Below, one piece after another: positions 28,495 to 62,771 of a stretch of 64,000 bases of DNA (the first letter of the stretch is position 1; each line of letters opens with the position of its first letter). The notes below the pieces were generated by a model, which saw nothing but the letters and a program-made list of their open reading frames with translations, did no database searches and was not told the DNA's origin. The DNA comes from Pyropia yezoensis (Eukaryota; Rhodophyta; Bangiophyceae; Bangiales; Bangiaceae): positions 22,004,671 through 22,068,670 of the forward strand of contig CM020619.1 in assembly GCA_009829735.1 (NCBI GenBank), read 5' to 3'. Position numbers and translations under genes: made by a program.

Positions 28495-28857
28495 TGTAGC
28501 ACAATAGGGATCCGCGGCACGTCCACTCTCAGGGAACACTCACCACGGGGGATCGGCACCAACGTCACCGGGAGGCCAAGGTTGCTGTCCTTGGAGCGCA
28601 AGCCACGGGACCAAGATGGGAGCCCAAATGGGAGGGGTTTGTTGTTCTACCTTGGCCGGCGGTGGATTCGCCGCCGGCCCCCTCGTTATAAACCCTCGGA
28701 GACGCTACTAACTACCCTCCACCCCAAGATGCAAGTCCCTCTGGTCATACGTAACTTATAGATACCGTGACCAGTACGAACTATCAAATTGAAAGTTAAG
28801 GGTTAGAAGTAGCCCCCCTAATATTAGGGTTACAATACGGCCAACCATATTGCTACA
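28495..28857 (-). repeat. Element C1 3' LTR
   Basis: 363 bp. It has a TTATAAA-type TATA word and a 9-bp GC-only inverted repeat (GGCCGGCGG/CCGCCGGCC) beside it. Homologous to the other three C-family LTRs. Confidence 0.9.
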
Positions 28858-29451
28858 TATCCCCCCCTTAGATTCGGCCCGTCCTCGGGTCGAGTTGCAT
28901 TCGGGTTTCCGAATGTAAGTGGGTCGCGTGACCGTTTACCAGTCGGGTGGGGCTTTGCGCCCTGTCGCGACAGACACCCCTTCTCGAGGTTGTCTGCGGG
29001 GGGTGCCCCCCTTTGTGTGGTACACACACGATCCGTTTTCCGGACCGTTAAATTCCCGATGCGGGTTTCTGTTCACGACCCCCCTTTCCGAGGGGTGGTG
29101 CAAGCGGATCCGCTACCAGGCGTCTGGTGGTAGGGGGGCCCCTCTCGTGTGGACGATTGAGTGGGGGACGGGGTGGCCCGCGTTGCGTGGGGGCGGTTGG
29201 GGGTGACCCGCCTTGCTTACCCCTTGCGGGGGGGGTCGGGGCGTGTCTCCGGTCCAGGTGCCTGGGTGGAGCGCCCTCGTAGCTCGGCTGGCGTGGGTCG
29301 TCCCGCGCTGCCGTATCGCTCGTCCTGAGCTGTGTGGTTATAAGCGCGGTTGCCCGCGCTTCCCTGGCTCGTCCGCGCGAGCGTTCCTTGTACCGGGTCG
29401 AGCCGGCCTCGGCTTTTCTGCACGGGGCGCCCCTGCTACCCCGGTTTCACC
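28858..29451 (+). promoter_or_regulatory. putative promoter and leader of the C1 antisense ORF
   Basis: About 590 bp between the LTR and the ATG of the plus-strand ORF, conserved in C2 (about 48176-48762). It includes a TTATAAG word (about 29337-29343) roughly 110 bp before the ATG. Conservation without coding potential suggests regulatory or leader function, which is inference. Confidence 0.4.
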
Positions 29452-31821
29452 ATGTCGGACCCCCAGGTACCCGGGGGCGAGGACGACCTCCTGCTTGAGG
29501 AGGAGGAAGAGGTGATGGTGGACGACGCTCCCGTCTCTGCCACCGCCGCCGAGTGCTTCCTGGCGAGCTCGTCAGAAGACGAGGGCGACCGGGTGACCGT
29601 TCGTGTGGCCCCGGAAGGCGCGCCGGGCGGGTTGTCGTCCGTATGTAGCGGCAGGACGGCTCCGTCGGGTGGCGGGCAACCGCGTGTCGTGGCTGCCTCT
29701 GCCCGTACTCCTCCGGCGGCCCGGATGGCTCCTGTCGCCGGTGCCGGCGCGGCTCTACCCCAAGACGGCGTCGCCGGCGTGTCGGATGGTCGTGGCGGCA
29801 CCCCGGCCGGGACGGCGGGTCAAGACGGCGCGGGTGCCCGCCCGGTTGATGTATCCGCGGCGGCGGGTAGCGGGTCTACCCGTGCTGCCCTCGTGGTACC
29901 CACGTCGGGCTCGGGTGGCGGCGATGCTCTGCCCGCGGTGCCGCGGACGCTCGGTGGTCAAGAAGTCTCTACCCCGATGGCAGTGGATTCCGGGAGCTAC
30001 TCCGGGCGGGTGCCCGCCCTTCTTCTTCCTCCTCGGCCCCGTGCACCTCCGGCACCGGCCCGGATGCCGGTGGGGCATCCCCCGGCGCCCCCGATTCTTC
30101 CTGGTCCTTCCCGGGCTGCCCCGTTGGGTGGCGGCGTCGCCCTGGCGGCGGGTCAACCCGCCCTGTCGATGTCCGACTTGGTGGCTCGGGTTCGAGGCCT
30201 GACTGTGCAAGAGTCAATGGAGTCCGCTGGGCGGATGCGGGTGGATTTCCACCAGCCGCGTCTCCCTGGAGAGACCTCCCGGCGTGTCAAGGTTGACCCG
30301 AGTTGGGAGCGGGAGTTGGTGCGGCTGGTCAACCAGCCGAACGCGGTGCGAGTTGAGCATCATTGGATCCTGAGCCAGCCGGACGACCGGCATGCGCAGC
30401 TCTGGCGCACCCGGATTGGGCGGGGTGAGGTCTACCTCGACTCCGCCTTCGGGGTATGCGACCTGATTGCCCCCGCGTTGCCGCGGGAGGTCGACTACCC
30501 GGCTAGTGCTCGGGGGATTGCGGCGGCGGCGGGGCCGGTGGCGTTTGGGGAGACGGTGGGCGACACCGGCCGGTATCCCGGCTTTGAGTATTTCCCGGGG
30601 GTATCCCCGTACCTGACGTTGACGGCTCCCTACCCGCCTATGGCGGGGTTGAAGTCAGCGTCGAGCTGGCGACGCAACTATGGTGTCATGGCGGATGCGT
30701 TCCGCACCGATATAACGTGCGCGTTGCAGACCGGTTACGGTCGCGCGCCGGTGTACACTGCCGTGCGCCCGCCTCTGTGGCAGGAGGGGTGGGAACCCGC
30801 CCCTGCTTTCCGGTTTGACACCGGCTCCTGCCTCCGATACTTCGGGAGTGTGTTGGCCTCCCGGCCGGTCCACCCGCTGCAGGGTACCTTCACCCTTGAG
30901 GTTACCCTCGGGCAGGCTTCCTCCTTCTTGCTGTCCGTCCGCCGGCAGGGGCGCCTGTTTCATCTTCCGACGGGTGTCCGTCGGCACATCTCGCAGTTGG
31001 GCGTGGACATGATAGCTGCCAAGACCGGGTTGGCCCGGGAGTTCGAGGCTCTGCTGGCTGTTCACGATGCCGTGAACTGGGCTGGGGTGTTGGCCCTTCC
31101 CCCGTACCGGGACCCACAGGCTGGGGCTTCCCCCTTGCCTCGTCACTCGTTGCGTATCCGGCGTACTCAGCCGGGTGAGCCCAATTGCCATGGGTGGGCG
31201 TCCACCGAGGCTGTTGCCGACCTGGGTACTCCCATGGTTATCCATGACCCTCTTCAGGTCCTTGCCCCGTGGTTCGGTGACCCGATACCGGCGGCGGTTG
31301 GCCGTCGTCCTCGAGAGTGGGGCTCTGCGGGTGGGGAGCGTGAGGTGTCCCGTCGTCGGGCGGAGCCCCGCCGGGTTTATGGTGGAGCCCCTTCGGTGGG
31401 GTCCTACCGGGCCTCATATCAGGCGCCACCGGCTCCGACGGTGGCCGTGTCGGCTCCTGTGGCTCCTCTGGCAGAGCCAGTGTCACCTTCCGCCTCTGTC
31501 ATGCCTGACGGGGGTCCCCGTCTATGGTATGAGGGCGTTGACGCCCTTATTGCCCGCGCGATGCGGGGGGGTCTCTCTGTTAGCTGGGGGGATATCTCCC
31601 CAGGTGCTGCGTTGGCTGGGTCAGCGCGTTGCTTCCGTGGCGTGCTTGACCGCCTCCAGACAGCTCTGGAGGACGTGGAGGCTGGCCGCAGCACCCTCGT
31701 CCAGCTATGCACCGAGGTAACTCGGGTGATTGACCGTCGTGAGATTGCCGACCGGTGGAGCATGGAGGCGTACGCGATTACACGTGAGTGGCCTCCCTCG
31801 GGCAGTGGGTCTACCCACTGA
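29452..31821 (+). CDS. Element C1 antisense ORF, 789 aa, unknown function
   Basis: The ATG at 29452 (CACCATGTC context) opens MSDPQVPGGEDDLLLEEEEE, an acidic N-terminus. A long Ala/Gly/Pro/Thr-rich linker follows. From about residue 240 there is a well-ordered region: MSDLVARVRGLTVQESMES, RRVKVDPSWERELVRLVNQP, RVEHHWILSQPDDRHAQLW, DAFRTDITCALQTG and FRFDTGSCLRYFGSVLASRP. Beyond it are QGRLFHLPTGVRRHISQLG and a C-terminal helix RCFRGVLDRLQTALEDVEAG. It is transcribed towards pol. The same protein, with one-residue differences scattered through it, is encoded in C2. No family recognised; the region from 240 on looks globular. It could be a capsid-associated or regulatory factor of the element, or a captured host gene. 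Confidence 0.65.
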   Translation: MSDPQVPGGEDDLLLEEEEEVMVDDAPVSATAAECFLASSSEDEGDRVTVRVAPEGAPGGLSSVCSGRTAPSGGGQPRVVAASARTPPAARMAPVAGAGAALPQDGVAGVSDGRGGTPAGTAGQDGAGARPVDVSAAAGSGSTRAALVVPTSGSGGGDALPAVPRTLGGQEVSTPMAVDSGSYSGRVPALLLPPRPRAPPAPARMPVGHPPAPPILPGPSRAAPLGGGVALAAGQPALSMSDLVARVRGLTVQESMESAGRMRVDFHQPRLPGETSRRVKVDPSWERELVRLVNQPNAVRVEHHWILSQPDDRHAQLWRTRIGRGEVYLDSAFGVCDLIAPALPREVDYPASARGIAAAAGPVAFGETVGDTGRYPGFEYFPGVSPYLTLTAPYPPMAGLKSASSWRRNYGVMADAFRTDITCALQTGYGRAPVYTAVRPPLWQEGWEPAPAFRFDTGSCLRYFGSVLASRPVHPLQGTFTLEVTLGQASSFLLSVRRQGRLFHLPTGVRRHISQLGVDMIAAKTGLAREFEALLAVHDAVNWAGVLALPPYRDPQAGASPLPRHSLRIRRTQPGEPNCHGWASTEAVADLGTPMVIHDPLQVLAPWFGDPIPAAVGRRPREWGSAGGEREVSRRRAEPRRVYGGAPSVGSYRASYQAPPAPTVAVSAPVAPLAEPVSPSASVMPDGGPRLWYEGVDALIARAMRGGLSVSWGDISPGAALAGSARCFRGVLDRLQTALEDVEAGRSTLVQLCTEVTRVIDRREIADRWSMEAYAITREWPPSGSGSTH

Positions 31822-32130
31822 GGAGTGCTATTGTTTGTGAGGGAGAGGGACCCGGTGGCCCTTATGGTGGCCGGGTAGTAGTGAGTCTAAGCTCATCCCC
31901 TTCGGGGGCATTGCTTTCCTCTGTTTGTTGCCCTGGGGAGTGCCCCTTCTGGCTCAGTGGTGCCTTGCCTCCCGTCCAACTTCTTCCAGTTGTTTCATGA
32001 TTGGGGAGGTCATCCTCCCTCACTCTGTGTCGTGGCTTGGGGAGGTCATCCTCCTTCGTAAGCCCCCTGGTTACTTCGATATTACTGGAGTTCGCTTTTA
32101 CCTTTAAGTCGACTTATTAAGGTTCTGGTT

Positions 32131-32250
32131 TACTTAGTTACCTAAGGTTGACTCTACTTAGTTACCTAAGCTTGACTCTACTTAGTTACCTAAGCTTGGT
32201 TCGAGTTAGAAACCTAAGTCTGATTTGATTTAGTAACCTAAGTCTGCCGT
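32131..32250. repeat. 24-bp tandem array of small palindromes (5 units, C1)
   Basis: Five 24-bp units begin TACTTAGTTACCTAAG or its variant. Inside each, CTTAG and CTAAG (or the variant TTAG/CTAA) form a dyad around four bases. It lies between the stop of the antisense ORF and the end of pol, where the two readings converge. C2 has four units. Confidence 0.8.
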
Positions 32251-32322
32251 ATCCATGTCACACCCTACTTAGTAGGACTAAGCCCCACCCCCCCACATCC
32301 GAAGTCGGAGTCGGTTGGGTTG

Positions 32323-35300
32323 TTACAGGAGGCGGCGTCGCCTCATGTAAGGCATGAGTAGTTGGCGGGGTATATTCGCCGCCTGTTCCCCGGTGGGTGA
32401 GTCGTAACCGACCCACATTACCTTGACGTACCAGGATTCTGGTGTACCTGGGTCGGTATGTCCGACGATGCTCTCCACCTGGTATGGGATTCTATCCGGT
32501 CCCACCGGGTCATCCGACCGGTGGGTGGTAAGCGCTTCATGTAGCAACCCAGCCGGTACCGGCTGAGGATGTTCTGGCTTCGGCGCTGGTAGGACATCAT
32601 TCACACTGATGCGTTGGATCTCCGTATCGGAGTGTATGATAACAGAGTGGTCATCTCTGTGGAGAATCTGGTACGGTCCCTTGACCGGTTGCATGAGCTT
32701 GTTCCCCCGGAACTTCTGGTGTCTGATGTAGACCCAGTCACCTGTCATCAGGGTAGCGTTGCGCACCCGTAGCCGGGCGTCGAAGTTCTTCTTGTATCGA
32801 AGTTGTGTACGGTCAAGGGCGCCCTTGAGTTTCGGTATCATCCACGATAGCTTGGCCAACCAAGCTAGGTGTATACGTTCGGCCGGTCGGCCTTTCGGTG
32901 TATCATACCGAGTGCACCTGCCTGGCGGCAGCGTCAGGTTACCGACGCCTAGTGGCATGACCCACTCTAGAGGGGCTATGTTCGTGCTCCGATGTGGCCT
33001 GGCATTGTATGCCAGGGTGAGTACGGACAGGAGCCTGTCCCAAAAGTTCGTGTGCTCGGCCACGTAGCACTGTAGCATCTTGACGATGATGCGGTTGAAC
33101 CGCTCCACCTGTCCGTTGGTTTGCGGGTGGTAGTCGGATGCCCGACGTGGTTCGATCCCGAACATGCCCATGACCTTAGTGCAGGATGCCGACGTCAGGT
33201 TTGCTTCGTTGTCGGAGAGGAGTTGCTTCATGACTCCGTATGCACTGATCCAGTGGTCAACCACTGCGTTCATGATCGTGTATGCCGTATCATTCGGGAT
33301 GGCTGCCGCTCGTGACAGCTTAGTGAAGCGGTCAGACATGACGAGGATGTACCTGTTCCCTTCTTCCGTTACCGGAAGTGGCCCGAGTATGTCGATAGCG
33401 ACTTGCTCGTTGGGCCCATCGGGTGGGAATAGCTTTATGGCAGACGCTTGCCTATGTAGACTCATGCGGTTACGTGCACAGGGGTGGCATCCCCTTACGT
33501 GGTCGACCACGTCGACGGCCATTGCTGGCCAGTAGAAGAACCTTCGAATTGCTGCGAACATGCGCGAACCCCCCGGGTGTCCGGCTGTAGGTTTCTCGTG
33601 TTCTCGTTCCATGACGGCTTGCCGTAAGGACACGGGAACCACGACTTGATGTCGTCCATCGGCGGGTGCCGGCCGGTATATGAGTCCGTCCTCATTCTCG
33701 GAGAAGATGCCGGCCGTACCGGCCAGGAGGTTAGCACGATGACGTCTACAGTCATCGTCATTGGCTTGTGACTCGCGGAAGTCCGCGAGAGTCAGTGGGC
33801 ATGCTCGGTGCGCCATGGTATGGTCAACCATACCTTGGGTGGAGTTACCCACCATGCAGACCGGTACCACCGGGATGTCTGCGTCCACCGGGCGGGTATC
33901 CCCGCTCGGGGTGTCGAGTCGAGATAACGCGTCTCCGAGGTGGGGGGTTGACCCAGCCTTATACACGGTGCGGTAGTCGTGCTCGGCCATCTTCAGCCTC
34001 CATCGGGCTTGCCTCCCATTGCTATCGGAATCCTTGTCACCAAGGTTGAGGAGCCATCGTAGGGGTTCGTGGTCGGACCTCACGATGAACCTGGAGCCCT
34101 CCAGGTATGGACGGAGCAGTTGCACTGCCCATATAACCCCGATGCACTCACGCTCGGTTGCACTATAGTTACGTTCAGCCGGGTTGAGTGTCCGGCTGAA
34201 GTACCCTACCGGACGTAGGTCCGGGATAACGTTATCGGTACCGATCAACGTCTCTCCCTGTAACAGGGTGCATCCCACTTGTGTATCGCACGCATCGACA
34301 TCGATGACGAAGGTACCCCGTCTGTGCGGTAGCGCAAGGATGGGTGGAGATAGTAGGGCTCGCTTCAGAGACTCAAATGCCTCCTCTTCGCTAGGCGAAG
34401 GGGGTTGGAGTACCTTGGGCAAGGTACTGCTCGTAAGAACCGTTAACGGTTTAGCTATCCGAGCGAAGCCCTTGACGAACCGTCGGTATACGTTGCACAT
34501 TCCCAGGAAGCTCTTGAGCTGTGTCTGGGTGTTAGGGAACCGGGCATCCCGGAGTGCCCGGGTATTGGCTTCGAGTACCCCTAGTTTACCAGGGGTTATC
34601 TGGTGGCCCAGATACTCGCCCGTCTGTTATAAGAAGGTGCACTTCTTCAGACGCAGGGTTACCCCGGCGTTCCTCAAGAGGGTGAGCACCTCGTCAACAT
34701 GTTGCACATGGTCATCCATGTTACGCGAGAAGACGATGACGTCATCGAGGTACACTAGGCAGTTACGCCACTTCACCCCCGACAGTATAATGTCGATAGC
34801 CCGCTGGAATGTAACGGGGGCGTTGGACAATCCGAAGGGCATCCTTCGGAACTCGTACACTCCACTGTGACAGACGAACGCCGTCTTGGGGATATCCTCG
34901 TCCGCCACTGGGATCTGCCAGTATCCGGCATTGCAGTCGATGGTGGTAAACACCGTAGCTTCCCCCAGGGAGTCGATGCATTCATCCATCCTTGGAAAAG
35001 GGTATGAGTCTTTCTTGGTAACCAAGTTGAGGCGTCGATAATCGATGCAAAGCCGAGGGGTTTGATCCTTCTTCGGTACGATAACGACTGGGGCACCCCA
35101 TTCCGACATCGAAGGTCGTATCACCTTCGCTTCGCTCATCCTCCTCACTTCTCCATCAACGATCTCTCGTTGCATAGGTCCTGCTCGGTGCGGTTGTGAC
35201 CGGGCGGGTCGTGCGCCTGGTACCAGGTCTATACGATGTTGGGTTGCCCCAATGGTACCCATGGCCCCGCCTGTCCACATGACGTCATGCTTTCTTAGCA

Positions 35301-36490
35301 TCCGTCGTACCCCTTCGGCTACCGAAGGGTGAAGGTGTTCGAGGTCAGCCTCGGCCAGGGCCTTCAGTGCTTCTTGGTCCTTCGGCGGAGTATCCGCCGG
35401 TAAGGATGGTCGACTAGGATTCCCGACGTCGGGATCGTCCTGCTCGGGGGTGTCGGCGACCGCCAGCACTTCAAGTGGTTCCACTTGACCTCCCTCGTCC
35501 GGGGTAAGGATGTCTCCTTCGTACAGCTCGGCGATTCCGAGGATAGTTCCCTTCGGGAGGGTGACTGCCTTACGGCGATAGTTCGCCATCACTAGGAGGG
35601 ACGAACCTCCTGCTGGGAGGTCTATGAGACCGTTTGGCCATGGTCAACCCATGGCGCTTGTACGTCCGCAGGTTGGACTGGACTCTGCAGGTGCCTGCGA
35701 GGTCACAGTTAACCGGGAGGACTGTCTCCGACAACGGCTCAAAGCGAGTTTGCTTGGCCAACCGAAGTGTCTTCGGCTCGACGCTTGCGTACACCTCAGC
35801 CACGTTAACGTGGCCCCCGTGTAGCGTCAGGTCGCTGACGATAGCCGTATGTCCTCGCTTCGTCCCGTCGGCTTCTTGATGCTCGACGGTCCTCCGGCCT
35901 GGCCGGATTGCATCCACGTGAACGTTGATTAAGGTGCATCCCAGTATGCAGGGCACCGATTGGGTCTCACACACCAGGAAGTCAACTTCCGTAGTGAGCT
36001 CCCCGATGGTGACCTGCAGCGACATCGCTGCGGTAGTACGAATGAGACGACCATTCGCATCCTTGATCGTGGGTCCCCGAGCAATTCAGACTCGCGGGAG
36101 CCACTTTTCGGGGAGGGTATCCTTCCGGATCAGGTTAGGTCCAGCCCCTGTACCCAGTACAGGGTAATACGATCGGGTCGACTGGGGGTCAACCCCCAGT
36201 GTGGCTGATACCTTGAAGTTCTCCAAGGTGAACAGCACGTGGCCTACACCGATATCCGGTGTAGCTCGGGCATCATGAACAGGGCCCTTGTCTGGTTCCA
36301 TGTGACGGGGCTTCCCGTCCTCTCCTCCCAACCTTGGTGGTTGGTCATCAATCCCCTGACGCCGTGTCGTCGGGGCCGGAAGGTGTACCCGGGGGTTGAT
36401 GCGGCGTCGGCTCAACCGCGCTCTCCGTGGGGCCTTCCCCGCGGCAGTCCGGGGTGGCTTGCTTGGGTTACCCCAGCGCCCCCCAGTCAT
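32323..36490 (-). CDS. pol: Element C1 pol region: protease to chromodomain
   Basis: On the minus strand: aspartic protease with TGAGPNLI (about 36.12-36.15 kb), reverse transcriptase with YLDDVIVFSRN (about 34.75 kb), RNase H (DVDACDTQVG, about 34.3 kb), integrase zinc finger and core (LLSDNEANLTS, about 33.2 kb), and a terminal chromodomain-like domain (WYVKVMWVGYDSPTGEQA, about 32.38-32.45 kb). Broken in several places; its intact homologue is in C2. Confidence 0.85.
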
Positions 36491-36981
36491 CCTTCCTCCT
36501 ACTCGTTTCCCGCCCTTGGTCGGGTGCTGCCCGCCGGGACATCCGGATGAGGAGGTTCCACCTCGACGGCCAGTACTCCACCTGGAGCTGGCTGCCTACC
36601 CGGTGCGGGTCCGGGTGCTCTGACGGGATACCCCCCAGTGGAAGCCTTGCGTTGCGCCGCTGCCCGCCGAGACTTCTCGGGGATGAGTGGGCAGGAAGAC
36701 ACCCAGTGCTGGGGATCTTCACACAACATACATCCGGACGTGCCGGCCCCCCCTTGGGTTCGCATAGGGGTAGCCCCGTAGCTCCGGTTGCCTGCCTCGG
36801 GCGCCCAAGTGCCTGCTCCCTGGGAGGCCTTGGGTCCCGGTGCCAGCCGGAACATGGACTCCCCCAACCGGTTGGCTCTACCAGCAATGTGCGGAGGTGC
36901 CTCCGTACGTACTGCCCAGGTAGGCAGGGGCTGGTAGGGGTTACCCGCAACCGGGGCATACCCCGTAGTCCGCACATACGG

Positions 36982-37195
36982 TGTAGCAGAAGTCACCTTG
37001 AAATCGCCGGAAAAATCGATGTTGGATGCCCGGAATCGAACCCACGCCATGGAACATATGTTAACCAGGCGTTGTGGACCACTGCGCCACGGGTTGAATC
37101 CTTGACATCTTGGGCCAGATATGGGCTTTTCACCCCAAATCCTTACAGCACCGATCGCTGGGTCCGTTATACGTGGCAGTCGCGATACTGCCACA
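36982..37195 (-). repeat. TRIM 3' LTR
   Basis: 214 bp, TG...CA. At its outer end is a dyad GTGGCAGT/ACTGCCAC (37173-37180 and 37187-37194). Carries the tRNA-like unit at 37011-37100. Confidence 0.9.
37011..37100 (-). promoter_or_regulatory. tRNA-like Pol III unit in the TRIM 3' LTR
   Basis: On the minus strand a perfect A box TGGCGCAGTGG (37079-37089) lies 36 bp before a perfect B box GGTTCGATTCC (37032-37042). A T5 run (37011-37015) follows 16 nt later. The spacing is that of a tRNA gene, so a Pol III transcript of about 80-95 nt is predicted. The acceptor, D and T stems do not pair well, so this is a tRNA-derived promoter rather than a working tRNA. Confidence 0.65.
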
Positions 37196-37432
37196 TATCC
37201 CCCTCCCCAAGGCTTGACCGCCCCGGTCAAGCAACTTTTCCCAGCTAACTCCGCGGCTTCCTCCTTGATGACTTTCCACTGTGCAGCTGGAAATTCCGGT
37301 ACTTTGGCAGGCGGGATTTACGCAAATCGCAGTACGGGTGATGACGATCCCACATCGTCCGCGTATCAGTCCGCCGTGAAGAGAGTATCCGCCGCCTGCC
37401 AGGTCACCGTCCTCCCCTGCTGCTCCACCAAA

Positions 37433-37646
37433 TGTAGCAGAAGTCACCTTGAAATCGCCGGAAAAATCGATGTTGGATGCCCGGAATCGAACCCACGCCA
37501 TGGAACATATGTTAACCAGGCGTTGTGGACCACTGCGCCACGGGTTGAATCCTTGACATCTTGGGCCAGATATGGGCTTTTCACCCCAAATCCTTACAGC
37601 ACCGATCGCTGGGTCCGTTATACGTGGCAGTCGCGATACTGCCACA
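37433..37646 (-). repeat. TRIM 5' LTR
   Basis: 214 bp, identical by eye to 36982-37195, and next to the PBS. Confidence 0.9.
37462..37551 (-). promoter_or_regulatory. tRNA-like Pol III unit in the TRIM 5' LTR
   Basis: Second copy: A box 37530-37540, B box 37483-37493, T5 37462-37466, all on the minus strand. The T5 run would end a transcript inside the LTR, before the PBS, unless read through. Confidence 0.65.
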
Positions 37647-38300
37647 TACGGGACGCGCCGTCCCGCTCCTTCGTTGACCTCGAACTGGGTTCCAGCTGGG
37701 GCGATGTACGCTACCGTACCATGCTCATCAATCACCGGCGTCGCCGGTAGCAACAGGTGGCCCTGTTGGTCGACTAGAGGTTCATCCTCACCCGTAGGGG
37801 TATGTTCGGTCGCCACCAGTACTGGTGCAGCCTTACGCTCCACCTTCTCTTGCCTCGGTACCGGGGTAAGATGGTGCTTGCCTCCCTCACCCTTGGGCTT
37901 CGGGGCCAAGGCACATTCCGGGTGTAGCACTCGGTAGGCGTCCCCTAGGGACTTGCACATGTGCATCAGTCGACTGAAGTTGGTCCGAGCCGTATTGGCT
38001 CCCCGTGCGGATATCCGCACGTAGTTGAGCACTCCTACGAACAGGATGGCCCGTAGTTCCCCTTCGCCGAGGAGCTTCCCCAGCTCGTATTCGAGCTCTT
38101 GGATGCGGCGTCCAAACATCTCTTCATCCTCCCAGGACTGGGCGGTGGCAGTGCGAAGGGCCCGATAGTGGTCTTCGCACTTGTCCTCACTGAGGTAGCT
38201 GCTAAGCAGCTCCTTCAATATCCCACGGTAATCCATGGGGGTAGCTGCGACCCTCAATCCCGGCATCGGGGATGCCTGGCGGAGGATGCCCCGGACCCGT

Positions 38301-38663
38301 TGTAGCAATATGGTTGTCCGTATTGTGACCCTAATATCAGGGGGGCTACTTCTAACCCTTAACTTTCAATTTGATAGTTCGTACTGGTCACGGTATCTAT
38401 AAGTTACGTATGACCAGAGGGACTTGCATCTTGGGGTGGAGGGTAGTTAGTAGTGTCTCCGAGGGTTTATAACGAGGGGGCCGGTGGCGAATCCACCGCC
38501 GGCCAAGGTAGAACAACAAACCCCTCCCATTTGGGCTCCCATCTTGGTCCCGTGGCTTGCGCTCCAAGGACAGCAACCTTGGCCTCCCGGTGACGGTGGT
38601 GCCGATCCCCCTTGGTGAGTGTTCCCTGAGAGTGGACGTGCGACGGATTCCTATTGTGCTACA
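38301..38663 (+). repeat. Element C2 5' LTR
   Basis: 363 bp, TGTAGCAATATGG...TGCTACA. TATA word TTTATAA at 38466-38472, then a 9-bp dyad (38479-38487 and 38496-38504) with an 8-nt loop. Confidence 0.92.
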
Positions 38664-38664
38664 T

Positions 38665-38681
38665 TGGTGGAGCAGCAGGGG
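38665..38681 (+). other. Element C2 primer-binding site
   Basis: TGGTGGAGCAGCAGGGG, one base after the LTR. The same sequence lies beside the C1 5' LTR (50390-50406, minus). Confidence 0.65.
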
Positions 38682-38888
38682 ACGGGTTTCCGTCACCCTT
38701 GTGGTGACGCCGTCTTCGGCCTTGGCACACGGATAGGGATCTGGTCCTTTTCTTGTACTCGTGGTGTTGCGACCTGATCGATTGTGTTGAGTTTTTACCT
38801 CTGACTTTGATCTACTGTTACTCTCCCCAATCTACCCCCTCGCTCTCTTGTTCGTGGTGATTGATACGTCGGTTGACTGATTGTGACC

Positions 38889-41072
38889 ATGTCTACCCAA
38901 GAGACGGGGAACGTTCAAGATGACGGATCGGCGTCTACGCCGACTCCGGAGGTGACTACGGGAACCGGGATCGGGAACCCGATCGATAACATTGAGACGC
39001 CAATGCTTTCCGGTGCCGGATCGACGTTTGGCACGGCTCGGACGGCAGGAGGCGGGGGCCCGCCTCAACTGTCGTCGACCGACCTCACTCCGCCGCCTCC
39101 TTCACCAGGGGATTCCCTGATGGCATCATTGGCCCGCATCGAGGCCCGGTTTTCCGGGCTCGACGCCCGTCAAGATCGGACGGAGGACGCAATGGCAGTG
39201 TTGATGTCAACACGGCACACGACGGGACCCCGTCGTGTTCCTCCCACACCGGTACGGTTCGAACCGGCCGGACTACTTTCGGAGTCCACCAGGGTCAACC
39301 CCGGTGTTGCTACTCCGGGACAACCCCCGGACACAATGGGGTATGGGTCCGACTCGTCGGCAGAGTTGGAACGGAGTCACACGGAGCGATACGCTCGGAG
39401 CACCCGAAGCGGACTCCACGGACACGACCCGGCGGATACGTACGCCGGGGGAGAGTCGGTTATTGGGGGAGGAGGTACCCTCTCGCAGTACCCCCACGAC
39501 GAAGGAGGCCAGGCAACTCGGGTTCCCGAGGTGCCGACGCCTGAAGTACCATCTTCAGTGGTGGAAGCTATGACCGCGCAGGTAACTGCGAGCCTACTGA
39601 AGCGGATGGAGTCCGATGAGTTCGCTCATCAACTGGCTAAGCGACTGGATATCCAGGACGCTGACACGGAGATCGTCAACGAGGTCTTCCGGTCGGTTCT
39701 TACTCCGGAACGTTATCGTTTGGAGGACCGCTCTATTACCGTATCGGAATCGATGCGTAATACGTCGCATCGGGCGATCCGCTCTATGCAGACCCTTATG
39801 AAGGGAGTCCCTATGTTCGGGGGGCCGAACGGACGCCCGTTGGCAGTCATCGGCTTCTTGACTAGCTTCAAGGCAGCCGCAGACAAGGCGCTCGTTAACG
39901 AGGGGCTGGCTCTGGAGATCCTCCCGTTCTTTGTTGATGAACGGGTGCGAGGCATTCTTCGCCAGGCATCCCCGATGCCGGGAATGAGGGTCGCGGCCAC
40001 CCCCATGGATTACCGTGGGATATCGAAGGAGCTGCTGAGTAGCTACCTCAGTGAGGACAAGTGCGAGGACCACTATCGGGCCCTTCGCACTGCCACCGCC
40101 CAGTCCTGGGAGGATGAGGAGATGTTTGGACGCCGGATCCAAGAGCTCGACTACGAGCTGGGGAAGCTCCTCGGAGAAGGGGAGCTACGGGCCATCCCGT
40201 TCGCAGGAGTACCCAACTACGTGCGGATATCCGCACGGGGCGCCAACACGGCACGGACGAACTTCAGTCGACTGATGCATATGTGCAAGTCCCTAGGGGA
40301 CGCCTACCGGGTTCTACACCCGGAGTGTGCCTTGGCCCCGAAGCCCAAGGGTGAGGGAGGCAAGCCCAGTCTTACCCCGGTACCGAGGCAAGAGAAGGTG
40401 GAACGTAAGGCCGCACCAGTACTGGTGGCGACCGAACATACCCCTATTGGTGAGGATGACCCTCTAGTCCACCAACAGGGCCACCTGTTGCTACCGGCGA
40501 CGCCGGTGATTGATGAACATGGTACGGTAGCGTACATCGCCCCGGCTGGAACCCAGTTCCAGGTCAACGAAGGCACGGGACGGCGCGTCCCGTATGTGCG
40601 GACTACGGGGTACTCCCCGGTGACGGGTAACCCTCACCAACCCTTGCCAACATGGGCGGTGCGCACGGAGGCACCTCCGCAGATTGCGGGCCGACCCAAC
40701 CGGTTGGGGGAATCCATGTTCCGGTTGACCCAAGGACCCAAGGCCTACCAGGGAGCAGGCACTCGGGCGCCCGAGGGAGGCAACCGTAGCTACGGGGCTA
40801 CCCCGATGCGAACTCAAGGGGGGACCGGCACGTCCGGGTGTATGTTGTGTGGGGATCCCCAGCACTGGGTGTCTTCCTGCCCACTCATCCCCGAGGAGTC
40901 TCGGCGGGCAGCGGCGCAACGCAAGGCATCTACTGGGGGATATCCCGCCCGAGCACCCGGACCCGCACCGGGTAGGCAGCCAGCTCCAGGTGGAGTACTG
41001 GCCGTCGAGGGGGCACCTCCTCAGCCGGATGTCCCGGCGGACAGCACCCTACCAAGGGCGGGAAACGAGTAG
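38889..41072 (+). CDS. gag: Element C2 gag
   Basis: About 727 residues from the ATG at 38889 (MSTQETGNVQDDGS). A Ser/Thr/Pro-rich N-terminus precedes a coiled-coil-like stretch (SLMASLARIEARFSGLDARQ) and the Gag core (FRSVLTPERYRLEDRSITVS, MKGVPMFGGPNGRPLAVIGF). Further on is YLSEDKCEDHYRALRTATAQ. A zinc knuckle C-M-L-C-x4-H-x4-C follows near residue 655. The frame differs from pol, as in families that use frameshifting or re-initiation. Confidence 0.88.
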   Translation: MSTQETGNVQDDGSASTPTPEVTTGTGIGNPIDNIETPMLSGAGSTFGTARTAGGGGPPQLSSTDLTPPPPSPGDSLMASLARIEARFSGLDARQDRTEDAMAVLMSTRHTTGPRRVPPTPVRFEPAGLLSESTRVNPGVATPGQPPDTMGYGSDSSAELERSHTERYARSTRSGLHGHDPADTYAGGESVIGGGGTLSQYPHDEGGQATRVPEVPTPEVPSSVVEAMTAQVTASLLKRMESDEFAHQLAKRLDIQDADTEIVNEVFRSVLTPERYRLEDRSITVSESMRNTSHRAIRSMQTLMKGVPMFGGPNGRPLAVIGFLTSFKAAADKALVNEGLALEILPFFVDERVRGILRQASPMPGMRVAATPMDYRGISKELLSSYLSEDKCEDHYRALRTATAQSWEDEEMFGRRIQELDYELGKLLGEGELRAIPFAGVPNYVRISARGANTARTNFSRLMHMCKSLGDAYRVLHPECALAPKPKGEGGKPSLTPVPRQEKVERKAAPVLVATEHTPIGEDDPLVHQQGHLLLPATPVIDEHGTVAYIAPAGTQFQVNEGTGRRVPYVRTTGYSPVTGNPHQPLPTWAVRTEAPPQIAGRPNRLGESMFRLTQGPKAYQGAGTRAPEGGNRSYGATPMRTQGGTGTSGCMLCGDPQHWVSSCPLIPEESRRAAAQRKASTGGYPARAPGPAPGRQPAPGGVLAVEGAPPQPDVPADSTLPRAGNE

Positions 41073-41080
41073 GAGGAAGG

Positions 41081-44000: not shown

Positions 44001-45247
44001 GTTCACGCATGTTCGCAGCAATGCGAAGGTTCTTCTACTGGCCAGCAATGGCCGTCGACGTGGTCGACCACGTAAGGGGATGCCACCCCTGTGCACGTAA
44101 CCGCATGAGTCTACATAGGCAAGCGTCTGCCATAAAGCTATTCCCACCCGATGGGCCCAACGAGCAAGTCGCTATCGACATACTCGGGCCACTTCCGGTA
44201 ACGGAAGAAGGGAACAGGTACATCCTGGTCATGTCTGACCGATTCACCAAGCTGTCACGAGCGGCAGCCATCCCGAATGATACGGCATACACGATTATGA
44301 ACGCAGTGGTTGACCACTGGATCAGTGCATACGGAGTCATGAAGCAACTCCTCTCCGATAACGGAGCAAACCTTACGTCGGCATTCTGCACTAAGGTCCT
44401 GGGCATGTTCGGTATCGAACCACGTCGGGCATCCGACTACCACCCGCAAACCAACGGACAGGTGGAGCGGTTCAACCGCACCATCGTCAAGATGCTACAG
44501 TGCTACGTGGCAGAGCACACGAACACTTGGGACAGGCTTCTGTCCGTACTCACCCTGGCATACAATGCCAGGCCACATCGGAGTGCCAACATCGCCCCAC
44601 TGGAATGGGTCATGCCACTAGGCGTCGGTAACCTGACGCTGCCGCCAGGCAGGTGCACTCGGTATGATACACCGAAGGGCCGACCCGCCGAACGCATCCA
44701 CCTAGCTTGGTTGGCCAAGCTATCGTGGATGATTCCTAAGCTCAAGGGTGCCCTTGACAGAACACAACTTCGATACAAGAAGAACTTCGACGCCCGACTA
44801 CGGGTGCGCAACGCAACCCTGGTAACAGGTGACTGGGTCTATATCAGACACCAGAAGTTCCGAGGGAACAAGCTTATGCAACCGGTCAAGGGACCGTACC
44901 AGATCCCCCACAGAGATAACCACTCTGTTATCTTACACTCCGATACGGAGATTCAACGCATCAGCATGAATGACGTCACACCTGCGCCTATGCCGGAACA
45001 GCCTCAGCCGGTACCGGCTGGGTTGCTACATGAAGCTCTTACAACCCACCGGTCAGATGACCCGGTGGGACCGGATGGGATTCCATACCAAGTAGAGAGC
45101 GTGGTCGGACACACCGACCCGGACCTACCAGGACCCTGGTACGTCAAGGTTATGTGGGTCGGATACGACTCACCCACCTGGGAACAGGCGGCAAATATAC
45201 CCCGCCAACTACTCATGCCTTACATGAGGCGACGACGCCTACTGTAA
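41081..45247 (+). CDS. pol: Element C2 pol: protease, RT, RNase H, integrase, chromodomain
   Basis: Protease with LDTGAGPNLI (about 41.42 kb), RT with IDYRRLNLV and YLDDVIVFSRN (about 42.5-42.85 kb), RNase H (DVDACDTQVG, NYSATERECLGV; 43.27-43.44 kb). Integrase zinc finger (H...H...CHPCARN, about 43.97-44.1 kb) and core (LLSDNGANLTS, YHPQTNGQVERFN; 44.35-44.48 kb). Chromodomain-like C-terminus (YVKVMWVGYDSPTWEQAA, about 45.14-45.2 kb). About one break; the RT-to-chromodomain part reads as one long frame of about 1,200 residues. Confidence 0.9.
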
Positions 45248-45324
45248 CAACCCAACCGACACCGACTTCGGCTGTTGGGGGGTGAGGCTTATACCTACTA
45301 AGTAGGGTGTGACATGGTTAAAGC

Positions 45325-45420
45325 AGACTTAGGTTTCTAAGTCAAATCAGACTTAGGTTTCTAAGTCGAACCAAGCTTAGGTAACTAAGTAGAGCTAAGC
45401 TTAGGTAACTAAGTAAAAAC
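45325..45420. repeat. 24-bp tandem array of small palindromes (4 units, C2)
   Basis: Four exact-period units containing ACTTAGGTTTCTAAGT or CTTAGGTAACTAAG, between the convergent ends of pol and the antisense ORF. Counterpart of the five-unit C1 array in inverse orientation. Confidence 0.8.
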
Positions 45421-56583: not shown

Positions 56584-57052
56584 TGTGGCAGTATTGACCC
56601 CCAGGTAGGGGGGCAACACGTGCCATGCAAGGAGCGGCAGGCCACTAGCCTGATCCGTTCCTCCCCCTGCATTTTGGTCCATATTCCCTAAGTTTGGGAT
56701 ACTTAGCTTAGTAGTAAATCCAACTTGGATTTGAGGGTTTTCTGCATTTATCGTCTTGAATTTTCGTGTGGCCCGGTGGGCAGGTGCTGGGGTGGGAGAT
56801 TCTGAGTGGCGAGATTCTGGGGGGACCCTGAGGGGATAAGGGGAGGGACAGCGGGGCTTGGCCCTGCGTCCCCGTCCCGACCAAGAAACTGTTGGACCAC
56901 ACACCATCCTCTTGTTTGTCAGTGGGGGGTTTGCCCCACAACAGGGACAGAGTGTGTGCGACTTGCACTTCTTCCGGTTCCCCCGACACGGGAGGCAGCC
57001 CTTGTACACCGCCCCAACTTGGGTGTCGTGTGTGCAAGTGGTTTTTGCCACA
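56584..57052 (+). repeat. Element E 5' LTR
   Basis: 469 bp, from TGTGGCAGTATTG to TTGCCACA. The first 11 bases equal those of the TRIM LTR. The end is fixed by the PBS (TGGTGGAGCAGGAGGGG, 57055-57071). Confidence 0.75.
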
Positions 57053-57170: not shown

Positions 57171-60100
57171 CATGGCTAGCTCGGACCCCTCGTCGTCCGA
57201 AGAGTACACGGGTGACGCACGTACTTCAGTGCTTTGAATACTGGTGAGATACAGGTTAGTTTACCTTGGGTCGCAGAGGGACTAGAGGTCCCTCAAGCCA
57301 GCAGGACTGGAAGTGTGGGCGGGCAACAGGCCACCTTGACTCAGTCGGGAGGTCATTCGGGTGACACTTCTGATGTGGGTGGGCCGAAGTCTGGCCACCG
57401 CGTGGTATACTCAACGGGAACGTCCAAAGGGGTGAGGACTGTCCCCGCGGGTTCCACTCGGGTTGGAGCCAACTTTGGCTTGAAGCCGTCGCCAACTAGG
57501 CTTTCGGAGGACAGCGGACCCCCGTTGGTCGGCGATGGGCTCGCGCCCATGCCCCCGGTTGAGACCCCTGAGGATCGTGGTTACCCCTCAGGTGGACTCC
57601 CGGAGGCGGACCGAGACTCAGCTGGAGTCGTCAATCCACTCCTCGCGGAAACTGTCCGTCGGGAGGCGACCCATGTGTTGCGGCGGACTTTGCCGAACCT
57701 GGTGGTCACGGTGACGAATACTATTCTGCATCAGATTGTGGCGAGTTTGCCAGATGGCCTTAATGTCCAGACCGGATCGGGGCTTTCGAGCCCACAGGCG
57801 CAAGGGGAAACCCTCCTCACGCCTATCTCGGGTCGCCCCGAACAGGGGGCGACCCCTGTGACTCCCAACGAGGGAGCCACACCATACTCGGTGGGGCGTA
57901 CGCCCTTCACGGGGGAGTTCCCCCCGGAAACGCCCGCGGCTACACTAAGCGCGCCGCGCCAGACTATGGGCCCTGAGGGTCAACTTACCCCAGTGCCAAA
58001 GCGGCTGTTTCCTCAACGTGAGGTGCCGCCCAAGATCCAGGTAGCCAACCCGGTCTACCAGCGGATCTTTGACTGTGAGACCTACGCCCTCCACAACAAG
58101 TCGGTGGCGTATGGTCCTGACCAGGCCCGAGCCATGGGCCGTGCCAAGAAGAATGCACTTCACTCTTTTGGGCACAAAGCGGAGTGGGATGGAACTCCCC
58201 CCCTCCGTGTCTTTGAGTTCCTACGTCGTTTCACAAAAGCCTGTGACGACAATGCCGTAAGTAAAGGTATGGCTTTTTACATGCTACAGGAGTTTACGAA
58301 GGAAGACCTGCGGACAGAACTTATGTCCGTCATGCCCAGCTCCTCAAGTGAAGGCGCTGGTGAGGTGACGTCCTATTTGGAGCTCGTCAACTGGTTTTTG
58401 AGGGCCATGGTTGATGAAGCGGCGTTGGCTTCTCAAGTCGAGGAGTTTACGCAAGCCCATCAGGAAGAGGCGGAGGACGATTTGTCCTTTGCGGAGCGAG
58501 TCCGTAAGCTCAACAATCTTAGTGGGTTTCTTCATCCACAAGCTGTGGTGAAGAGTCCGTTTGTGGAGGGACTCCATTGGTCAGTCCGTATGGAGACCCG
58601 GGAGCATAACACTGCCCGGGCGACCCTGGCCGAGTTGGCAAGGTTCGCCTACCGCAGAGGCGAGGCCTACCGCAAGTTGCGGGAGGAACAACGCCAGGAG
58701 CGTCAAGCCGAGTTGGCCAAGCAACGGGAGGAGGCGCGCCAGGCCAGAGAGTTGAGAGAGGCACGCCGAACCCGCAACGAGAGGGTCGTAGCTGCCGTGG
58801 GAGCTTCCCAGGGTATCTCTTCGTCTTCCCCAGTTGGGAAGACCCCTCCGGGAACTGACAATCGGTGTTGGAACTGCAACTCCGATGGACACTGGGCATA
58901 TGATTGCCCCAAGTTGAGTAAACGCATCCAACAACTTGTTAGGAATGCGAGTAAGAAGTCGGTTACGAACGAAGTACGTTCACGCCGCGAGGGTGGGTCT
59001 CGACCGGTCGTCGCGGTCGCCACACCCTCGGCGGAGGAGGCTGACACGTCGTCCTCGGACTCGTCGTCTTCCCCCTCGCACTCAGATTCTGACGCCAAGT
59101 CTAAAGCTGACCATCTGATCGATATCAATGGTGGGGTACTTCCCATCGTTGGTGCCGTAACCCTACCAACTAGGTTGGGAACCCATGAGGTCGACGTGAC
59201 CTATGGAGTAGTCGAGAATATATCGGTACCCCTGCGTCTGGGTACCCCTTACGTTGTGACACAAGTGCCTCTGATTTGTGGCCCTGAGTATTGGGTCAAG
59301 TTGATGAATGGGGAGACCATCCCCATCCTTGGTAAGGGAAAGTCTGTGGCTCCTGTGACAGTCTCACAGGCGAAGCCTGTTTTCTCCGTGAGAGAAGGGT
59401 TTACTGCTACCCTGCGATTAGCCCGTAAGGTCTCGTTGCCCCCCAACTCGGTGGCGCACGTTGACGTTGTAACTGATTATACGAGGAACGGGTTGGTGCA
59501 CCCTTACCCCCGTGTTGCTCGCAAGCACCAAGTGCATGTTGCCCTTGGCACTATGGACTCCAAAGCCGGAGTCCCGTGGAGGATCCAGGTGATGAACCTG
59601 AGCTCGTCGCCCAAGTACTTCAAGTTGGGAGCCAAGTTCGGCTATATCGACCAACACGAGGGACCGGTAGTAGCGGTCACCCTCAACGCAGGCGCAAGTG
59701 ACGACCCGAAGCCCGGAAAGGAGAAGCATCAAGCCAAGTCGGCCGCCTCTCCTCGGCCCCATGTGAACATGGAGGGTGTTCCACCCAGGTTGAGGGTTCA
59801 AGTTGAACGCCTCTTGGACCAATATCACAAGTTGTGGGATGGCCAATTGGGACTCATGAGAGCTACCCAACACCGGATCGAGTTGAAGCTCGGTGCACCC
59901 CCTATACGCCAACAACCGTATAGGCGAGGGCCCCGTTCAAGGGCCCTCGTTAAGGAGCAAGTTGCTCGCATGGAGGCCCTCGATGTGATCGAGGCCAGTA
60001 ACGCCGAGTGGGCGAGTCCGGTGGTTATCGTCCCCAAAGTTGATGGGACCCCCCTGTTCTGTATCGACTACCGTAAGCTCAACGAGAGCACGGTGAAGGA

Positions 60101-62771
60101 CAGTTACCCCCTACCTAGGATGGACGACTGTCTGGACTCCCTCGGGGAGGCGAACGTGTTCTCTACCCTGGACTGTAACGCGGGGTACTGGCAAATTCCC
60201 ATTGCCCCGGAGGACAGGCATAAAACTACCTTTACGTGTCACTGTGGTACCTACCAGTGCAAGCGTCTACCGTGTGGCCTGTGTAACGCGCCGGCAACTT
60301 TCCAGCGCGCTATGGAAATGATTCTGGCCGGAGTACGGTGGCAGATCTGTCTCGTGTACCTAGACGATATTATTGTGTTCTCCCGAAGTCCGGAGGAACA
60401 CATTGGCCATCTTGGCCAGGTGTTCAAGCTACTTGCTGACGCCGGTGTGTCTTTGAAGGCGAGTGAGTGTCACCTCTTCACTCAAGAGGTGGAATACTTG
60501 GGACATGTTGTCCGTCTGGGGCGTCTCAGTGTCAACGAGAAAAACTTGGGGGCCATCCGTAAGGCTCAGTACCCCCGGACCCAGATCCATATGAGGAGGT
60601 TCCTCGGGATGTGTAACGTGTACCGAAGTTTCACCAAGGGCTTCCCCAAGGTGGCGAAACCGTTGAATGAGTTAGTGAGCTCAACGCTACCGAAGAACCT
60701 GCCTCCCCCAAGTCGGGTGGAGCAGGAATCCTTTGAGACTCTTCGGGACCTTCTGCTGAAGCCCCCTATCCTGGCTATTCCCAGGTTGGGAGGCCACTAC
60801 ATCCTGGATGTGGACGCTAGCTACGACCAACTTGGTTGTGTGTTGCTTCAGCAGCAGCCGGACAAGAAGTACTTGCCGGTGGGATACTTCAGCAAGGGGC
60901 TGAACTCGGCCGAGAAGAACTACGGAGTCACCGATTTGGAAGGACTCGCAGTGGTGTGGGCGGTGACGTCACTTTGTAACTACCTAGAGGGTGAGAAGTT
61001 CCTCATCCGCTGTGACCACCGCGCGTTGCAGTTCATTTTTAAGACGGACTGTACGAACACTCGTCTCAACCGGTGGAGGGTGCGACTGGCACCCTTCAAC
61101 TTTGATATTGAGTACCGACCTGGCAGGCAACATGCCTTTGCCGACGGCCTCTCTCGGGTACCTACCGAGGGGCTGGACACTAACCCAGTCGATGAGGACA
61201 TCCCCATCGTGGGGGTAGTCACGCGCTCGGGTCAGGCGTTGAACCCCGAGGCGCCAGGGAACAAGAAGTACTTGCCCCTGTCCCTGGACGAGGTGGTGAA
61301 GGCCCAGTCCGAGGATCCCTTCTGCAAGTCGCAGAGGGATACACTGGATACAGTGGCGGAGACACGGTTCTTTCTCGGAGACGATGGCCTCCTCATGAGG
61401 AGGGGGGTATTCCAGGGGACCGAACAACTTGTCGTCCCCGCATCCCTCAAGGACAGTATCCTTGAGAGGGAGCGTAACGCTCCCACAGGTGGACACCTGG
61501 GGTCTAGTAAACTGTACCAGACCCTGAGGACCAGGTACTACTGGCCGTCCATGGTGGTGGACCTCTACAGTTGGGTGGCTGCCTGCACAAGTTGTGCACA
61601 GAACCGTCTGATGGAACGGCGGCCTACTACGGCTATGCTATTGTTCCCGGCCAAGGAGCCCTTTGCCGCGTTGGCGATGGACATCCTTGGACCACTGCCA
61701 GTGACCGAGGAGGGCAACCTGTACCTCCTGGTCATCTGTGACCGCTTCACGAAACTTACGCGAGCGATCCGACTGGCAGAGATCACGGCCATGTCGGTCG
61801 TGTCAACCTTCCTAGATCACTGGGTTGCCGCGTATGGCATTCCGGATAGTACACTATCGGATAATGGACCGCAATTTGCGTCTGTACTGTTTCAGGGAGT
61901 GCTTGATATGTTGGGGGTTAAGGCAAACTATGCCACCCCCTACAACCCACAAACTAGTGGGCAGGTGGAGCGCTTCAACAAAACTATTGTTAGGCAGCTG
62001 CGCCACTATGTGAGTGAGCACATGAAGACGTAGGACCAATACATTTCTGTTCTTACCACTGCCTAAAATTCGCAGGTGTACTCATCTACCGGGGAAGTAC
62101 CCCTCGCTTTTGTGACCCCCCGTCGCGTGCGGTCTATTGCCGTGCGACGGTCGCTCCCAACTGGGGAGGGTAGTGGCAGTACGCCTACTCCTACTGAGAG
62201 TAAGGCGGAGTTCGCCGCTAGGCTTGAAAACCTCATCCCTAAAGTCAGGGCTGAGATGGACAAAGCACAAAAGCGCTACAAGCGTACCTTTGACAAAAAG
62301 GTGCGCAACGCCAAGCATGTCCCCGAACAGGGTGACTGGGTATTGGTCCACTCACGCACCCCAACTGGGGGTAAGTTGGTATTCCAGACGAGGGGGCCGT
62401 ACCAGGTCCTCCGTACTGATGGGCGGCGCTTCACCATCGAAAGTGACGATGGGGTCCGTACAGTGAACGGACAGGACGTGGTCAAAGTTGCACCACCGAT
62501 TGCAGGCGACCCAGCTTGGGCGCGTGCGTTGGAAGCGTGGCGCCTCCCCTCACTGCCTGCGGCCAAACAGGGCCCGCAGGAGTACGTGCTCGATAAGTTC
62601 ATCGACCACGGCTGGGATGAGGACACTGACCGCCTCATGTTGAGGGTGCGTTGGTTCGGCTACAAAGCCAAGGATGATACGTGGGAGTATGTGGAGGACC
62701 TTCCCGTTGAGATGGTCCGGGCTTACTGTGCCCGGAATGAGATAGACCCGAACAGCCCTCCCTCAACGTGA
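57171..62771 (+). CDS. pol: Element E gag-pol region
   Basis: Mostly one long frame, with gag fused to pol. Gag core (FEFLRRFTKACDDNAVSKGM, VNWFLRAMVDEAALASQVEE), an Arg/Glu-rich helix (REEARQARELREARRTRNER) and a zinc knuckle C-W-N-C-x4-H-x4-C (about 58.87 kb). RT (FCIDYRKLNES, YLDDIIVFSRS; 60.06-60.38 kb), RNase H (DVDASYDQLG, about 60.81 kb), integrase zinc finger (about 61.49-61.6 kb) and core (LSDNGPQFAS, YNPQTSGQVERFN; 61.85-61.98 kb). Chromodomain (LRVRWFGYKAKDDTWEYVED, about 62.64-62.7 kb). Broken about twice. Confidence 0.85.

What the first reader, a model, noticed from the sequence alone, without database searches (positions are those of the whole stretch)
36982..37646. TRIM whose LTRs contain a tRNA-like Pol III promoter and terminator
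Each 214-bp LTR has perfect A and B boxes 36 bp apart and a T5 stop 16 nt past the B box, all in the element's sense strand. The known precedent for a Pol III promoter in a TRIM LTR is Cassandra, which uses 5S rRNA. A tRNA-type version would be a different solution: the LTR would be both an integration end and a small-RNA gene. Identical LTRs and an intact TSD indicate recent movement.
Basis: partly seen in the sequence, partly recalled or inferred. Interest (0 to 1): 0.88.

Follow-up and report, generated by a model that had tools for sequence, protein, structure and literature searches.

The report
Tiny retrotransposon with tRNA-type promoter
A red seaweed (nori) genome carries very short jumping elements whose ends hold start and stop signals normally found in tRNA genes; elements of this kind were described in 2024 in fungi, animals and one plant, so this is a new branch of a known kind rather than a new principle.

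Summary
Window 36982-37646 is a 665-bp TRIM: identical 214-bp LTRs, tRNA-Ala primer site, polypurine tract, 5-bp duplication, and an empty site in a sister copy of the gypsy element it hit. Sense is the minus strand. Each LTR has strict A and B boxes 36 bp apart and T5 16 nt past the B box. The host matches the red alga Pyropia yezoensis.

tRNA-type Pol III boxes in TRIM LTRs were published as "Helenus" (Kojima 2024). I collected 51 LTRs of this family (F1) and 56 of a second family (F2) with the same layout at 56% LTR identity. Box conservation is mixed: the B box is 11/11 between families, but within families only F1's A box stands out. Similarity to tRNAs outside the boxes is not significant.

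New here: such TRIMs in a red alga, a tRNA-Ala primer, and genomic chimeras joining F1 and F2, at the primer site, to two abundant LTR elements (Y, a gypsy; X, superfamily unread), which point to likely helpers. Pol III transcription is untested. If Pol III makes the full-length RNA, it must read through T5 of the 5' LTR.

The parts
36982..37646 (-). Whole TRIM, 665 bp (family F1, interior type A); sense is the minus strand
37433..37646 (-). 5' LTR, 214 bp
   Evidence: 100% identical to the other LTR
36982..37195 (-). 3' LTR, 214 bp
37530..37540 (-). A box TGGCGCAGTGG, 5' LTR
   Evidence: strict match to TRGYNNANNNG
37483..37493 (-). B box GGTTCGATTCC, 5' LTR
   Evidence: strict match to GGTTCGANNCC
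37462..37466 (-). T5, 5' LTR
   Evidence: 16 nt past the B box
37079..37089 (-). A box, 3' LTR
37032..37042 (-). B box, 3' LTR
37011..37015 (-). T5, 3' LTR; the two T5 are the only T runs of 4 or more on the sense strand of the element
37414..37430 (-). Primer-binding site for tRNA-Ala(UGC), 2 nt inside the 5' LTR; 16 of 17 match
37198..37208 (-). Polypurine tract GGGGAGGGGGA before the 3' LTR
36977..36981 (.). Target site duplication TACGG, left
37647..37651 (.). Target site duplication TACGG, right
28495..38301 (-). Rearranged gypsyA copy into which the TRIM inserted
   Evidence: self-comparison of the window
40590..40594 (+). Empty target site (single TACGG on the other strand) in the sister gypsyA copy 38301-49125
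56584..57052 (+). LTR of gypsy Y, candidate helper of F1; first 11 bases equal those of the F1 LTR; no B box
57234..62033 (+). ORF of gypsy Y; two pieces of it give RT, RNase H, integrase zinc-binding and integrase core domains

Best explanation
A non-autonomous LTR retrotransposon (TRIM) of the Helenus/TRIMp3 kind in a red alga. Pol III is recruited by the A and B boxes inside the LTR, starts about 12 nt upstream of the A box, sometimes reads through T5 of the 5' LTR and the 237-nt interior, and stops at T5 of the 3' LTR. The RNA of about 540 nt then has a terminal repeat (R) of about 90 nt; other starts end at the first T5 as a dead-end RNA of about 90 nt. The long RNA is packaged by a helper (gypsy Y for F1), primed by tRNA-Ala, copied, and integrated with a 5-bp duplication. 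Shown: TRIM anatomy, insertion with empty site, two families with one layout, helper-like LTR start, chimeras at the primer site. Inferred: Pol III use, start point, read-through, helper identity.
For: Anatomy and empty site. Strict A+B in 46 of 51 F1 LTRs and T5 in 45 of 51. Second family with the same order and spacing, B box 11/11 identical. F1 has no shared variant at 15 box-defining positions against 41 at 199 others, p 0.043. T5 is the only sense T run of 4 or more in the three elements examined. Helper-like chimeras at the primer site with Y (4 of 14 F1 interiors) and X (4 of 24 F2 interior matches). Published precedent of the kind.
Against: No RNA evidence. F2 shows no box conservation within the family; its A box has T at the A/G place, so a strict A+B pair is in 2 of 56 copies and a loosened one in 27 of 56. 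A non-box block upstream is conserved as well (44/56). Absence of other T runs is expected by chance (P about 0.4 for each element). Similarity to tRNAs outside the boxes is not significant (P 0.24 and 0.12). T5 in the 5' LTR should stop Pol III.
Confidence: 0.55

Rival explanations
1. The genomic RNA is made by Pol II from U3, as in the helpers; the boxes make only a short Pol III RNA, or bind TFIIIC without transcription.
For: T5 right after the promoter would end most Pol III transcripts. Y, X and gypsyA LTRs have no B box, so this replication cycle works with Pol II promoters. The U3 block next to the A box is conserved between families (44/56).
Against: Both families keep the same box-box-T5 order. 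Cassandra is said to start in one LTR and end in the other despite terminators (PMC10886601 passages), and its multi-element transcripts are attributed to reading through LTRs (PMC7215508 passages).
Confidence: 0.3
2. The A and B boxes are chance or decayed leftovers of an ancestral tRNA or SINE and have no function now.
For: No tRNA model match. No box conservation within F2; B box average within F1. Spacer similarity to tRNAs not significant.
Against: 2 of 20,000 and 0 of 20,000 shuffles of the two LTRs give such a pair. B box 11/11 between families with 13/36 in the spacer. F1 A box 1 variant cell in 11 columns of 51 copies.
Confidence: 0.15
3. On the chimeras only: they arose by ordinary DNA recombination between neighbouring or circular copies at the shared primer site, and say nothing about helpers.
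For: Tandem LTR-interior-LTR arrays exist (C3:6153330-6154430) and are known for TRIMs (PMC4717578 passages). In L072 the Y LTR follows a Y-type polypurine tract, so it is a 3' LTR.
Against: The joints lie in about 20 nt shared at LTR end and primer site. One X-F2 chimera (L176) has near-matching flanks CCGGA/CCAGA, as if inserted as one DNA.
Confidence: 0.35

Closest known systems
Helenus, tRNA-type TRIMp3 (Kojima 2024, PMC10886601)
   Same: TRIM with A and B boxes in the LTR, PBS and PPT, 5-bp TSD as in fungal and plant Helenus, solo LTRs, several families in one genome, predicted RNA not a working tRNA.
   Different: Red alga (not in its Table 1 or main text); tRNA-Ala primer (not among the primers named in its main text); candidate helper of F1 is a gypsy although the TSD is 5 bp, where the paper pairs gypsy with 4-bp animal TSDs and copia with 5-bp fungal ones; similarity to tRNAs outside the boxes not significant.
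Cassandra (5S-type TRIM)
   Same: Pol III promoter and terminator inside a TRIM LTR; tandem arrays (passages).
   Different: 5S rRNA promoter; Rfam gives no 5S match here at E up to 10.
Foamy virus LTR miRNA cassettes (PMC6950176, passages)
   Same: Pol III unit with terminator inside an LTR, giving a short RNA of about 110-130 nt.
   Different: Autonomous retroviruses; the cassette makes miRNA precursors and is mostly in U3; genomic RNA is made by Pol II (recalled).
TRIMs of the red alga Chondrus crispus (PMC4717578, passages)
   Same: TRIMs in a red alga.
   Different: The passages seen report no Pol III promoter; sequences were not compared.

Membership tests
TRIM | Under 1 kb, two LTRs, PBS and PPT, no coding capacity for mobilisation | tested here: met
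   665 bp with all parts; F2 617 bp likewise
TRIM | Integration with target site duplication | tested here: met
   TACGG and empty site; exact 5-bp TSD at 22 of 51 F1 LTRs, full-element LTRs included in the 51; 16 of 26 single F2 LTRs and 6 of 7 full F2 elements
Helenus | A and B boxes of tRNA type in the LTR | tested here: met
   F1 strict A+B in 46 of 51. The paper's usual GGTTC (box B) and YGG (box A) are present; its TRGCY start of box A fails at the fifth base in F1 and at the second in F2
Helenus | tRNA-derived sequence by similarity to tRNA or SINE2 (Censor, tRNAscan-SE in the paper) | tested here: inconclusive
   Those programs were not available. ARAGORN and Rfam negative; alignment to 20 tRNAs P 0.007 (F1) and 0 of 300 (F2) with everything shuffled, but P 0.24 and 0.12 with boxes kept
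TRIMp3 | Transcription by Pol III | not testable with these tools
   No RNA data
Cassandra | 5S rRNA sequence in the LTR | tested here: not met
   No 5S match at E up to 10
Autonomous gypsy or copia | gag-pol coding region | tested here: not met
   Interior of 237 bp

The most novel reading that the evidence does not exclude
The LTR is a true small-RNA gene: Pol III makes a discrete RNA of about 90 nt, ending at the first T5, that has its own role (for example titrating TFIIIC, or acting in packaging or priming), while the rarer read-through RNA is the transposition template. Pol III TRIMs would then have arisen independently in red algae and been kept in two families through one promoter-terminator module serving two different helpers.
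Probability: 0.12. Interest if true: 0.7.

Novelty: new member of a known kind. Interest (0 to 1): 0.42.

Why it matters
It extends tRNA-promoter TRIMs to red algae, far from the fungi, animals and lycophyte where Helenus is recorded, which favours repeated origin. Kojima supports helpers for Helenus by primer-site similarity and, in one fungal case, by a shared interior; here chimeras joined at the primer site name candidate helpers (Y for F1, X for F2) that can be tested. A T5 kept in the repeated end of two families makes the read-through problem of Pol III TRIMs concrete.

Tried and rejected
A tRNA or other known RNA in the LTR: ARAGORN and Rfam negative. An independent SINE as source: a 97-nt query from the A-box leader to past T5 scored 40 of 71 candidates; 34 were LTRs already and the other 6 proved to be F1 LTRs too, one of them truncated; the 31 unscored candidates were not seen. 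A third family: a scan of 338 kb of fetched DNA and window for box-box-T4 gave only tRNA loci, F1 and F2. GypsyA as helper: same primer site and 5-bp TSD, but its LTR start differs from F1 at two of the first 11 bases and I met no F1 chimera with it in the loci looked at; it is the insertion target. TTCTT as a transposing subfamily: its carriers share no other change except at hot site 70 and between two copies of one duplicated locus, so recurrent mutation is likelier. A 63/70 base pair kept by compensation: nearly all letter combinations occur. The superfamily of X was not read. Y and X LTR searches scored 40 of 1765 and 40 of 1361 candidates.

Rows dropped before counts: the last 18 columns of one truncated F1 copy were masked, one segmental duplicate was merged, and copies in one 3-kb bin counted as one locus (searches counted all copies, with no such merging); LTR matches covering less than about 180 (F2) or 190 (F1) query bases were left out. 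One search used 20 of the 39 fetched tRNA or tRNA-like loci; one search compared the primer site with 22 of them.

Full report
What is there. The element at 36982-37646 reads on the minus strand. It has two identical 214-bp LTRs, TG...CA ends, a 237-bp interior that begins with TT and a primer-binding site, and a G-rich polypurine tract before the 3' LTR. The primer site matches the 3' end plus CCA of tRNA-Ala(UGC) of this genome at 16 of 17 positions (next best of the 22 tRNA ends compared: 12 of 17); one copy of the family (C1:29860193) matches 17 of 17. TACGG flanks both sides. A sister copy of the gypsy element that was hit lies at 38301-49125 and has the same sequence with a single TACGG.

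Host. The genome has 107.5 Mb; its three large contigs are 43,592,136, 34,331,705 and 29,385,039 bases. The Pyropia yezoensis paper gives scaffolds of 43.6, 34.3 and 29.4 Mbp and 65% GC (PMC7423979, passages). I take the host to be that red alga.

The boxes. Each LTR has TGGCGCAGTGG and GGTTCGATTCC 36 bp apart and TTTTT 16 nt further. Strict pairs occur nowhere else in the window and in 2 of 20,000 shuffles. Rfam and ARAGORN see no tRNA in the LTR. Against 20 of the fetched tRNA loci the F1 piece aligns better than full shuffles (P 0.007), but not better than shuffles that keep the boxes (P 0.24); for F2 0 of 300 and P 0.12. What is shown is a tRNA-type promoter layout, not a tRNA gene.

Copies. 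LTR searches scored 40 of 75, 40 of 71 and 40 of 70 candidates. From these and later calls I collected 51 F1 LTRs. 46 of 51 keep a strict A+B pair and 45 of 51 keep T5. Exact 5-bp duplications flank 22 of the 51, among them two copies of one duplicated locus; the 51 include LTRs of full elements, where this test does not apply. Seven LTR pairs compared differ by 0 to 18 substitutions; the window pair by none. F1 comes with two interiors about 72% alike under near-identical LTRs: 3 matches of type A and 11 of type B, one of them partial. One locus is a tandem array of three LTRs and two interiors.

A second family. Beside one F1 copy lies a 201-bp LTR with its own duplication GGGAG, 77% alike over 70 nt. 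Its search scored 40 of 112 candidates. F2 is a full TRIM family of 617 bp with a 215-bp interior, the same tRNA-Ala primer site and a polypurine tract; 6 of 7 full elements and 16 of 26 single LTRs have a 5-bp duplication. The order is the same: A-like box, 37 bp, perfect B box, 17 nt, T5. Its A box has T at the A/G position: a strict pair is in 2 of 56 copies, a loosened one in 27 of 56; T5 in 51 of 56. A 20-letter block upstream of the A box shared by F1 and F2 occurs 132 times genome-wide with up to 2 mismatches, against 1 for the reversed pattern, a rough count of LTR copies.

Within F1 (51 copies) the A box is unusually invariant (5 of 204 windows as low or lower) and the B box is not (70 of 204). 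Within F2 (40 copies) neither is (114 and 166 of 191). Counting only variants shared by two or more loci, F1 has none at the 15 box-defining positions against 41 at 199 others (p 0.043; all variants p 0.12); F2, now 56 copies, has 7 at 15 positions against 86 at 186 (p 0.61; all variants p 0.97). Between families: B box 11/11, A box 8/11, T5 4/5, spacer 13/36, U5 end 9/29, but the block upstream of the A box 44/56. Copies mutate freely after insertion (inference), so the within-family test is weak; the result is mixed.

Termination. In the three elements examined the LTR T5 is the only T run of four or more on the sense strand, which fits a Pol III template but is expected by chance with P about 0.4 each. 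If Pol III starts about 12 nt before the A box (assumed), R is about 90 nt and the RNA about 540 nt, and the first T5 must be read through. For Cassandra, multi-element transcripts are attributed to reading through intervening LTRs (PMC7215508, passages).

Helpers. Y has a 469-bp LTR (56584-57052) that starts with the same 11 bases as the F1 LTR, and its ORF has RT, RNase H and integrase domains in gypsy order. At 4 of 14 F1 interiors the Y LTR stands directly before the F1 primer site, and at 4 loci (three of them the same) an F1 LTR stands before a Y interior, in one case a relative 77-80% alike; the joints fall in the 20 nt shared at the primer site. F2 does the same with X, an LTR family of about 571 bp with four pairs of copies 9,078-9,079 bp apart among the 40 listed: the X LTR plus a TATT spacer stands before F2 interiors at 4 of 24 interior matches, two of which share a 3' flank and are probably one event. 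A native X copy has the same TATT spacer and primer site. F2 and X LTRs start with the same 8 bases. The simplest reading is strand transfer between co-packaged molecules at the common primer site. DNA recombination at that site remains possible; in L072 the Y LTR is a 3' LTR by its polypurine tract. Neither Y nor X LTR has a B box; each has one A-like match.

Relation to what is known. Kojima 2024 (PMC10886601; abstract, introduction, results, discussion, figure legends and tables seen) defines Helenus: TRIMs with tRNA-like sequence in the LTR, in fungi, animals and Selaginella, and proposes TRIMp3 for TRIMs with a Pol III promoter. It says without experiment it cannot be concluded that the promoter works. 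Red algae are not in its Table 1 or main text; its supplement was not readable here. My searches for Helenus, for TRIMs with tRNA and Pol III, for Pyropia LTR retrotransposons and for TRIMs in red algae listed no report of Pol III TRIMs in red algae by title or abstract; TRIMs as such are known from Chondrus crispus (PMC4717578, passages). These searches cover open-licence PMC papers only.

Verdict. A real and recent insertion, a new red-algal lineage of a known kind, with a clear pointer to its helpers. Pol III use is more likely than not but unproven.

Noticed in passing
F1 LTR positions 63 and 70 (window 37133, 37126, 37584, 37577): The two bases flanking TGAAAA between GGG and CCC are by far the most variable of the LTR, mostly C/G in many combinations (C-G 16, G-G 11, C-C 8, G-C 7, A-G 5, other 4 of 51). 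The matching spot is also the most variable in F2 (8 of 40). Dislocation errors at run ends during reverse transcription would fit.
   Followed up: partly
G000 C3:20188041-20189404 (L008): Head-to-head structure: F1 LTR and interior on the minus strand, then a Y LTR, then an F1 interior and LTR on the plus strand; may be an autointegration product.
   Followed up: partly
L082 and L092; L078 and L104: tRNA genes with insertions at unusual places: L092 equals L082 plus 14 nt in the D loop, L104 equals L078 plus 11 nt in the T arm. They look like ectopic tRNA introns, which I recall from the red alga Cyanidioschyzon.
   Followed up: no
L103, L109, L113; L107, L108: Repeated tRNA-like sequences with similar short inserts or lost acceptor ends, below or just above the Rfam tRNA cut-off, at several loci.
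   Followed up: no
G000 C1:27590538 (L018): A Y LTR is followed by TA and then a complete F1 element, an unusual LTR-LTR junction.
   Followed up: no
25779-25873: ARAGORN's tRNA-Ala(ggc) here is probably a false call in GC-rich sequence; Rfam gives no tRNA in the window.
   Followed up: partly
38301-49125: GypsyA: two 363-bp LTRs, CCCGT duplication, tRNA-Ala primer site, plus a second reading block on the minus strand (45728-48457) with a homologue at 29350-31821; its role is not known to me.
   Followed up: no
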